Virus record (IMG/VR): IMGVR_UViG_3300029309_000272
Span: 1 to 22,247 of that record
Length of the DNA stretch: 22,247 nt
Strand: one strand, 5' to 3'
DNA from: a virus
How positions within the stretch are numbered: the first letter of the stretch is position 1; every line of letters starts with the position of its first letter. The translations under genes and the position numbers were made by a program. This document shows positions 130-7,515 of this stretch, in pieces. The notes under the pieces were generated by a model. The model searched no databases and was not told where the DNA came from. It worked only from the letters and a program-made list of their open reading frames with translations.

Positions 130-3100
130 TTAACGATTTTTACTTTTTTCTTCAAGCTCTATAATTTTTTTAACTCTATCTTCTTCGTACTTAAGTGCTT
201 TAATTTGTTTATTTGTTAAGCCAAAATTTAACAACAAATTAACTTGATCTTTTTTATTCATTTTAAACAAGTCTATTTCTCTTTGCTCTGACTTGCTTGG
301 TTTGTAATTTTTAATATCAGTTAGTTGTTTGTCTATTTTTTTTGTATTTTTATTACGAAGCTCCATTATAATACTAACTCTATCTTTTTCTAATCTATAA
401 TCTTTAGGGTTTAAATTGTTTTGTTTTATTATATTTTCTTGCTCTCTTTTACTTAAATCAAATACTTCTTTTTCTTTTATAATTATATCTATTTCTTCTT
501 TAGTTTTTCCTGGATATTTTTCTTTTATTTTATCCATTTTTTTCTGTTGTTTCTTTCTTTCTTTTATATTTTCACCTAAAGCTTCTATATCTTGATCTTT
601 TATACCTAAGTCCCAAGTATTCCAACCTAGTACTAAAGCAACTCTTTGCCAAGTTTCATTTCTACTGTCTAAAGCGTTTTCTAAGTTACGTAGCTTGTTA
701 GAAAGTCTAGCTAATGGTAAATTAGTAACAGCTTCTATAACATTACCTATAGCACTAAAAGCAGGATTATCAACTTTAAAACCTCTTTCTTTCATTATAT
801 CTCTATTAAATCTTTCAGTTTGTATAGATGAATATATTTTTCTAAGCTTAGAACCAATAGGTGGTGAAAAACTAAGCGCTGCTAATATAGTATAAGTGTG
901 ATCAGGTCTAGTCATAAACTTTTCATCAAGATCTTTAGCTCTTTGTTTTTGATATTCTAACAACGTGTTTTTTAATGTAGCAACACCTTTACCACCATAA
1001 CCAAACGTTGATAACCAAGAATCAAAAATACTATTTAACATCCTTTCTTTTTTCTTTTCTTTTGCTTCATCATCTTCATCACCCATCGTAGCAAATAAAG
1101 CAGACTGTAAAGCTGTAAATAATATACCTTGTGCAATACCATAATAAGCTATTTTAGAAACATGTGTTTTAGTATCACCTCTACCATTTATAATATCTCT
1201 AAACGCCTTGTCCATAATACGACCATATTGCATAGGTGTATTCTGAAAAGATAATATCATCCTACCTAAGGCATCAGCTTGTTGCTGTGATATTAAATCA
1301 GGTCTTGCAGACTGCTGTGATACTTCTGTTATTTCTTGAAAATCTAAAAATGCTTGTTTTTCAGCTTCAAACTTAGACATACCGTCTTTCATATACTTGT
1401 TAACTCTGTTTCTATAAAAAGTAGCACCACCTGAAGCAATAGCAAAACTATCAGCTAATTGTGTAGGTAAAAATCCTATTTTTAATAAATATCTTATAGC
1501 AGCTTTAGCTTGCTCGTAAGCACCTTTACCAGTAACAGCTTCGCTTAATTCTTGTTCGTTAACACCTCTTTGATTACCAGCACGTCTTTGTTTTAAAAAG
1601 TCTGAGTTAAACAAGAAAACAAAATCTGACCAAAATTGTTTTTGATTTGCAAATGCAGCAGCTGCTTTAAGCGGATTGTTATCACTCCAGTTCATGTAGT
1701 TTATAGAAGATATAGTCTGTAATACAGCAGAACGTATGTTAAAAAACATTATAGCACCTATAGATCCGTTAACCCAGTTCATAAATTCATTAGTTAATCT
1801 ACTTTTATTTGTAGGCCTGTTTCTACCAGTTTTCATACGATATAAAACGTCTTGTAAAGCTTCTACAAATTTAGTGCCATATATAACTTTTATTTTATTC
1901 ATGTTTTCAGGGCTAAACATTTGATCTATATTTAACTGCCACTCAGCTAAATACTTAGATCTTACATCACCTAAAGCACCATCACTAAATAAATCTGATT
2001 TTATGTTTTCTGTTAACCAATACTCGCTTGGAGCTGTAAAGCTTTGTTGTTCTTTTGATATTGTACCAACAGCATCAGCAAAAGCTTTTATATCTGGATT
2101 ATTTTCTACAAATTCTGTAAGAGCCTTTGCATCTCTTTTTGTCATACCAGGTACTTCAATACCGTTTTTATTCCATAAATACACCCTAACGGCTTGATCA
2201 ACATTATAATTTTTAATATAATCAGGTGTATTTTCAAACTTTTTTAACTCGGTAGTTAATTGTTTTTTAACTTTAGGTAAACTTTTTACTAGCTCTTTGT
2301 ATTTTTCCATTGTACGTTGTCTAGCTGTATTAAGTTCGTTTATACCTTTAGCAAAAGGATCTATTAAAGTTTTCTTAAAAAACTCAAATTGTCTTTCACC
2401 AACTCTACCTTTACCTAAAAAGTTATATAATAAGCCCATAAAGTCTTGAGCAGATGGTGGCACCAAATTAAAGTACCTACCTTTTCTACTTCTTAAATTA
2501 GCTTGTACATCTGAAAAACGTTTTTGTGAATCAACGCCAGTAGTATCTTCTATTATATCATTAAACTGATCATTAATTGATCTACTAAACTTTACTTTAG
2601 CTTGTACAGACTTACCTTTAATGTCTAGCTGGTTTATTACATCAGCTACAGCTTTTACGTTGGGTAAAGCATCATCAACAAAATATATATCATTATAACC
2701 TTCTGAATATTTACCAGTTATCCAAAGTGCTTTTGCTTCACCAGTACTATTACCTAAACCAGTAATATTTTCTAACGGTATGTTTATGCCTTTTGTTTTA
2801 AGCCAACCGTGTATTGCCGTAGCGCTTGCTGGTGGCCTAGCAGTTAGTACATAGTTGTTTTTAGCACCATATTTTTTTATTCTGTTTCTAAGCTTTTGTA
2901 ATAAAGGTCCTTCGACACCGCCTCTAACATTTACAAAATCTTTAAAATCAAACTTATACCCTTGCTCTGCTAGCTTAGGACCTTTTATTGGCCATTGACT
3001 ACTAGTTATTTTTATTTCTTTACCTTGTGGACTAGTAGCTATAATAAAATTATCACCTTTATCAATTAACGTTTCATCAAAATCAAAAGCAGACATACCT

Positions 3101-7515: not shown

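What the first reader, a model, noticed from the sequence alone, without database searches (positions are those of the whole stretch)
130..7515. One phage protein combining zinc peptidase, nuclease-like and HAD phosphatase signatures
The 2461-residue protein carries an HExxH motif (500-504), a D-x12-ExK motif (1216-1231) and the full four HAD motifs (1478-1615) in one reading frame, plus hydrophobic helices and a helical repeat. It sits in a likely virion ejection module. This points to a capsid-delivered, multi-enzyme weapon or host-takeover protein rather than a plain tail protein. Multi-domain 'polyvalent' proteins are established for phages and conjugative elements; this specific combination is my reading.
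Basis: partly seen in the sequence, partly recalled or inferred. Interest (0 to 1): 0.75.

Follow-up and report, generated by a model that had tools for sequence, protein, structure and literature searches.

The report
Giant modular phage protein carrying sigma-like domain
This is a giant, probably capsid-carried protein of an uncultured marine-type phage whose relatives always pair a zinc peptidase with a phosphatase and also carry a piece resembling the bacterial transcription factor sigma, and the enzyme pieces are swapped between related phages like cassettes.

Summary
In detail: one 2461-codon ORF on the minus strand (7515 to 130) with the named motifs at the named residues. About 105 non-redundant IMG/VR relatives, absent from 50,697 phage genomes, show what is meaningful. 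(1) HExxH plus a downstream Glu (H500, E501, H504, E583) is invariant in 99/99 members, a gluzincin. (2) All four HAD motifs are kept in essentially all 107. (3) D-x12-ExK alone is chance level (1 seen, 1.16 expected), but E...GD-x12-ExK is invariant in 9 homologues down to 23% identity: a PD-(D/E)xK-like module present in only about 1 in 10 members. (5) The C-terminal helical core matches phage 'large polyvalent protein' folds. Two phages 84-98% identical over most of the protein differ in exactly the sigma-like cassette; another pair differ in exactly the peptidase and nuclease. The gene closes the virion-structural module, like ejection-protein genes. Best reading: a new variant of the known polyvalent proteins, likely ejected into Bacteroidota hosts. 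Packaging, catalysis and RNA-polymerase binding are inferred, not shown.

The parts
130..7515 (-). Giant polyvalent protein gene, 2461 aa
   Evidence: Open frame ATG 7515 to stop 130; about 105 non-redundant IMG/VR relatives
6226..7263 (-). N-terminal helical/hydrophobic module (residues 85-430)
   Evidence: Shared by 9 relatives at 24-57% identity; follows a poly-Q stretch
5476..6273 (-). Gluzincin metallopeptidase domain (residues 415-680)
   Evidence: H500, E501, H504, E583 invariant in 99/99; AlphaFold pLDDT mostly 81-95 up to E583, HExxH and E583 in two helices beside a sheet
6004..6018 (-). HExxH motif (residues 500-504)
5767..5769 (-). Predicted third zinc ligand E583
   Evidence: Invariant in 99/99
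4996..5418 (-). Sigma-70 region-2-like domain (residues 700-840)
   Evidence: Family profile A11 vs whole PDB: the only 3 hits are sigma factors; subfamily A13: 39 of 40 hits are sigma factors; A13-A14 linked, E 8.5e-7, 91.5%; this protein's own model returns about 20 sigma-factor chains in the Foldseek top 50
4246..4995 (-). Helical middle region, function unknown (residues 841-1090)
   Evidence: Conserved in about 24 relatives; no PDB or Pfam match
3124..4239 (-). PD-(D/E)xK-like nuclease cassette (residues 1093-1464)
   Evidence: E1195...G1215-D1216-x12-E1229-x-K1231 invariant in 9 homologues; helix-strand-strand-strand order in the model, with E1195 in the helix and E1229/K1231 on a strand
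3823..3870 (-). D-x12-ExK motif (residues 1216-1231)
2506..3123 (-). HAD phosphatase domain (residues 1465-1670)
   Evidence: Four motifs conserved family-wide; weak match to phrog_415 polynucleotide kinase in 24/53 members; alternating strand/helix order in the model
556..2505 (-). C-terminal all-helical core (residues 1671-2320)
   Evidence: Conserved with the HAD domain in about 100 relatives; model matches BFVD proteins annotated Large polyvalent protein associated domain, ART-PolyVal, MuF
130..555 (-). C-terminal tail with a two-copy helical repeat
   Evidence: Shared by about 13 relatives; repeat D1
7537..10353 (-). 938-aa neighbour, positional equivalent of phi38:1 gp100; candidate second ejection protein
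   Evidence: Gene order
10372..11199 (-). 275-aa Ala/Gln-rich neighbour, positional equivalent of phi38:1 gp099 'virion structural protein'; candidate small ejection protein
   Evidence: Homologue found on 80 of 106 relative loci (in one, L108, the best match lies downstream)
12901..18693 (-). 1930-aa virion structural protein
   Evidence: phrog_14478 E 2.3e-122

Best explanation
The gene encodes a polyvalent protein that is most likely packaged in the capsid of a Bacteroidota-infecting podovirus-like phage and ejected with the DNA as the largest member of an ejection-protein trio (275, 938, 2461 aa). The C-terminal helical core (with the N-terminal hydrophobic module) would serve packaging and delivery. 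The gluzincin would cut the polypeptide itself, before or after entry, freeing the cargo. The cargo is a sigma-70 region-2-like domain, a PD-(D/E)xK-like nuclease cassette and a HAD phosphatase of probable polynucleotide 3'-end type. The sigma-like domain would bind host RNA polymerase to redirect or block early transcription; the nuclease would act on host or competing nucleic acid; the phosphatase would mend phosphorylated nucleic-acid ends or act on nucleotides. Shown here: domain conservation, fold-level similarity, module swapping, genomic position. Inferred: packaging, ejection, catalysis, targets, self-processing.
For: Invariant gluzincin residues 99/99 and HAD motifs across the family. 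PD-(D/E)xK pattern invariant in 9 homologues with the right secondary-structure order. Sigma region 2: unselected family profile finds only sigma factors in the whole PDB; subfamily profile 39/40 sigma factors, linked to this protein's subfamily; independent Foldseek of this protein's model rich in sigma factors. Cassette exchange: L009 is 80-98% identical to P0001 over residues 451-650 and from 851 on, but 30-36% over residues 701-800, where L015 (14-26% in most upstream windows) is 90-92%; L009 and L010 are 84-100% identical except the zincin and nuclease modules. Core fold matches annotated polyvalent proteins. Last gene of a conserved structural module in the relatives and in phi38:1, elemo, Panino and MW202828, where the equivalent giant is annotated as structural in phi38:1 and elemo. 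Polyvalent proteins with zincin domains and delivery with DNA are described in PMC5512222.
Against: No Pfam, PHROG or PDB family reaches threshold for P0001 itself. No PDB Foldseek match is individually significant. The sigma E-values are marginal singly, no Sigma70_r2 match appears among the Pfam families shown for 79 members, and sigma profiles built from about 50 Bacteroidota sequences neither find the domain in the giants nor align to it convincingly in hhalign (one weak P 0.0036); the A13 subset was picked partly because it looked sigma-like. The cultured relatives' giants lack detectable HAD and sigma-like domains. No proteomics.
Confidence: 0.6

Rival explanations
1. It is mainly an ejection-channel/structural protein (T7 gp16-like), and the enzymatic domains serve assembly only: the zincin matures virion proteins in the capsid, and the sigma-like helices are simply DNA-binding or scaffold helices.
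For: Position as the last and largest gene after a small and a medium structural gene, as for T7 gp14/gp15/gp16 (general knowledge; gp15 size); the helical core is the most conserved large region. N4 virion RNAP contains a zincin region needed for encapsidation (PMC5512222).
Against: HAD catalytic residues are conserved across the family and cargo cassettes are swapped between near-identical phages, which is hard to explain for a purely structural part.
Confidence: 0.2
2. The sigma-like segment is not a sigma homologue but a convergent helical DNA-binding or protein-binding domain; the rest of the reading stands.
For: Marginal single E-values; negative controls.
Against: Two unrelated methods (whole-PDB profile search and Foldseek of the AlphaFold model) both single out sigma factors, in the register of region 2.
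Confidence: 0.3
3. A host-takeover protein expressed after entry that is never packaged.
For: No proteomic evidence of packaging; takeover enzymes are often expressed after entry (general knowledge).
Against: Co-directional last gene of the late structural module in the relatives; positional equivalents annotated as structural proteins in phi38:1 and elemo.
Confidence: 0.1

Closest known systems
Polyvalent proteins of phages and conjugative elements (Iyer et al. 2017, PMC5512222)
   Same: Several unrelated enzyme domains in one very large polypeptide; zincin-like metallopeptidase with HEXXH plus a downstream Glu helix; encoded beside virion genes; LPD-type regions (LPD14 in 5 of 44 relatives scanned); core fold matches annotated polyvalent proteins.
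   Different: HAD phosphatase and sigma-like domains do not appear in that paper's main text ('phosphatase' 0 and 'sigma' 0 occurrences; 'had' 3, apparently only as the verb); here zincin + HAD + core is the constant frame.
Podovirus ejection proteins (T7 gp14/gp15/gp16; PMC8954989)
   Same: Order small-medium-large at the end of the structural module; mosaic swapping of enzyme domains; peptidoglycan-hydrolase domains (SLT, GH108) in single relatives.
   Different: No sequence match; far larger (2461 aa versus 609-1337 aa for gp16-like homologues) and with different enzymes.
Giant structural proteins of Pervagoviridae/Elemovirus phages (phi38:1 gp101, elemoA gp21, Panino, MW202828)
   Same: Same gene position, module and size class; zincin in elemoA (E 5.8e-11) and probably MW202828 (E 3.5e-7), in a six-sequence search.
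   Different: No significant HAD, sigma-like or core homology by sequence.
N4-type virion RNA polymerase
   Same: Giant virion protein combining a zincin with a transcription module (PMC5512222).
   Different: Here a sigma-like domain instead of a polymerase, suggesting redirection of host RNAP rather than its replacement.
Polynucleotide kinase/phosphatase HAD (T4 Pnkp type; phrog_415)
   Same: HAD motifs; weak profile match in 24/53; two relatives carry a P-loop kinase together with this HAD.
   Different: E only 1e-3 at best; in the two relatives the kinase is inserted inside the HAD domain, not fused before it.

Membership tests
Polyvalent proteins | Several domains with disparate predicted activities in one polypeptide | tested here: met
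   Zincin, sigma-like, nuclease-like, HAD
Polyvalent proteins | Homology to known polyvalent/LPD domains | tested here: met
   BFVD Foldseek E down to 1e-13 for phage proteins beyond the family's own members, and 1e-8 to 1e-5 for ones annotated LPD/PolyVal; LPD14 Pfam hits in 5 relatives; none in P0001 itself by sequence
Polyvalent proteins | Genomic context with virion genes | tested here: met
Polyvalent proteins | Delivered into the host with the DNA | not testable with these tools
   Needs virion proteomics or an infection assay
Gluzincin metallopeptidase | HExxH plus downstream Glu ligand in a zincin fold | tested here: met
   Invariant in 99/99; helix/strand order in the model; but no PDB zincin among the 50 Foldseek hits shown
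HAD superfamily phosphatase | DxDxT, S/T, K and DD motifs in order in a Rossmann-like fold | tested here: met
   the best PDB HAD-type Foldseek hit is only prob 0.41 (1zjj)
PD-(D/E)xK nuclease | alpha-beta-beta-beta core with E, D and ExK conserved | tested here: met
   no PDB profile hit, so the fold is inferred from motif plus secondary structure
Sigma-70 factors | Region 2 homology | tested here: inconclusive
   For. Against:
Sigma-70 factors | Region 4 (-35 recognition) and RNAP binding | not testable with these tools
   Region 4 was not searched for separately; binding needs an assay
T7-like ejection proteins | Sequence or fold homology to gp16 | tested here: inconclusive
   No gp16 among the listed PDB Foldseek hits, but the multi-domain model is a poor query; the resemblance is positional

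The most novel reading that the evidence does not exclude
A phage ejects, inside one self-processing giant protein, a sigma-factor-derived domain that seizes or redirects host RNA polymerase from the first moments of infection, and related phages exchange this sigma cassette to match their hosts, a counterpart to N4's virion RNA polymerase.
Probability: 0.35. Interest if true: 0.85.

Novelty: new variant of a known kind. Interest (0 to 1): 0.62.

Why it matters
It defines a family of roughly 100 to 200 marine-type viral proteins with no match in the reference phage collection searched, in which a peptidase-HAD-core frame carries exchangeable cargo. The cassette swaps between near-identical phages show where evolution cuts the protein, so each cargo domain can be expressed and tested separately. 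A virion-linked sigma-like domain would give a concrete, testable route by which phages without a virion polymerase start transcription.

Tried and rejected
Direct family searches of P0001 in Pfam, PHROGs, PDB and tblastn against phages: nothing. D-x12-ExK as evidence by itself: rejected, chance level. PDB profile hits of the HAD, nuclease and middle modules: spurious. PDB Foldseek of the 1198-residue model: dominated by helical transporters, judged meaningless. LPD38 membership of the core, recalled from memory: no Pfam hit among the families shown. Homology of the HAD, core or sigma-like modules to the giants of cultured relatives: not detected. Sigma hypothesis by hhalign and hmmsearch with about 50 locally gathered sigma factors: negative or weak, reported as evidence against. 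Proteomic support for packaging in a 2026 Cellulophaga paper (PMC13288928): the terms gp100 and gp101 do not occur in it.

Full report
What is there. The finding is one open frame on the minus strand, window 7515 to 130, 2461 codons. The window is part of a 28,143-base IMG/VR record; the rest was read as L002. Gene order in transcription direction is terminase, portal, a 392-aa protein, major capsid protein, 272, 230, 460, 1930, 435, 114, 275, 938, 2461 aa. The portal and the 1930-aa protein match, at under 60% identity, flavobacterial phages only, apart from one unclassified environmental phage: Flavobacterium elemo phages, Cellulophaga phi38:1 and relatives, Tenacibaculum and Maribacter phages. 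In phi38:1, elemo, Panino and MW202828 the last gene of the same module is also a giant, of 1691, 3694, 1829 and 3859 aa, annotated as structural protein in phi38:1 and elemo.

A family of its own. P0001 finds nothing in Pfam, PHROGs, PDB or 50,697 phage genomes, and a HAD consensus finds nothing there either even at E <= 1. In IMG/VR the HAD segment finds about 200 relatives, of which the best 80 per scan were fetched, giving about 105 non-redundant proteins. Two contigs binned into bacterial MAGs also carry it. The 275-aa neighbour has a homologue on 80 of 106 loci, almost always upstream and in the same order as the other structural genes.

Zinc peptidase. HExxH occurs in 95 of 95 members with a complete N-terminus, against 1.0 on average in shuffled sequences. 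With the downstream Glu the invariant set is H500, E501, H504, E583 in 99 of 99. In the AlphaFold model (mean pLDDT 83.5) HExxH and E583 lie in two helices beside a small sheet, which is the zincin description given for polyvalent proteins in PMC5512222.

HAD phosphatase. DxDxT, TAR, K and DD are invariant or nearly so. The two members that miss the strict pattern have DFDDT followed by an inserted P-loop kinase. 24 of 53 members weakly match phrog_415, polynucleotide kinase, so a nucleic-acid-end phosphatase is the best guess, not a result.

Nuclease-like cassette. The D-x12-ExK motif alone is expected 1.16 times in this protein. However, 9 homologues down to 23% identity keep a helix Glu (E1195), G1215-D1216, E1229 and K1231, and the model gives helix-strand-strand-strand in that order. 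This is the PD-(D/E)xK pattern. Only these 9, and weakly 2 more, of the family carry it.

Residues 700-840 follow the peptidase. A profile of 79 members searched against all PDB sequences returns three hits in total, all RNA polymerase sigma factors at region 2 (E 0.022, 0.19, 0.28). A 22-member subfamily, chosen partly because it looked sigma-like, returns 40 hits of which 39 are sigma factors, and it aligns to P0001's subfamily with E 8.5e-7. Foldseek of P0001's own model lists about 20 sigma-factor chains among the top 50, none individually significant. Against this: P0001's own subfamily profile A14 finds no sigma factor in the PDB, Pfam Sigma70_r2 is not among the families shown and local sigma profiles do not find or align to the region convincingly. 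An iterated profile places the segment after the peptidase in all 95 members, but it includes the peptidase tail, so universality of the sigma-like part itself is not proven. I treat the assignment as probable (about 0.65 to 0.7).

Cassette exchange. P0001 and L009 are 80-98% identical in every 50-residue window over 451-650 and from 851 on, but 30-36% over residues 701-800 (with intermediate flanking windows at 651 and 801); L015, 14-26% identical in most upstream windows, is 90-92% there. L009 and L010 are 84-100% identical except the peptidase and nuclease modules. Swap borders thus coincide with the domain borders proposed here. Other relatives carry LPD14 (5 of 44), a transglycosylase (1 of 24) or a GH108 domain (1 of 20).

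Core. The C-terminal 650 residues are all-helical. Foldseek against viral structures gives uncultured full relatives at E 1e-68 to 1e-60, then many phage proteins, several annotated as large polyvalent protein associated domain, ART-PolyVal or MuF, and a Tenacibaculum phage structural protein.

Mechanism and limits. The most economical reading is a polyvalent ejection protein whose peptidase frees cargo that acts on host transcription and nucleic acids. Packaging, self-cleavage, catalysis and targets are inferences. The polyvalent concept is known (PMC5512222); HAD and sigma-like parts are not mentioned in the main text of that paper and a library search found no report of a sigma domain in such a protein, within an open-access library only.

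Noticed in passing
L121 residues 2060-2260 and L123 residues about 1682-1880 (giant proteins on these loci): A P-loop kinase domain (AAA_33 E 1.3e-11, Zeta_toxin E 2.7e-9) is inserted inside the HAD domain between motif I and the cap; the motif I-II distance is 80-83 residues in 104 other members.
   Followed up: partly
P0001 vs L009, residues 651-850 (window 4966-5565): A sharp drop from about 95% to 30-36% identity confined to the sigma-like segment, with L015 holding the near-identical version: a recent recombination event.
   Followed up: yes
window 22245-22247 and L002 about 2240-2252: The major capsid gene is interrupted by a short run of ambiguous bases, which may explain why the window ends there.
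   Followed up: no
L006:35438-40927 (Maribacter phage Panino giant gene): Annotated 'tRNA methyltransferase'; residues 381-599 match phrog_4752 (E 1.7e-16), another cargo type in the equivalent giant protein.
   Followed up: no
L108:17676-18293: The best homologue of the 275-aa neighbour on this locus lies far downstream of the giant gene, unlike on the other loci.
   Followed up: no
L129 (Maricaulis MAG contig) and L128 (Sphingobacteriales MAG contig): The HAD-core gene occurs on contigs binned to two phyla; the Alphaproteobacterial bin may be a binning error or a second host range.
   Followed up: no
window 7396-7449: A poly-glutamine stretch near the N-terminus of the giant protein (residues 23-40).
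   Followed up: no
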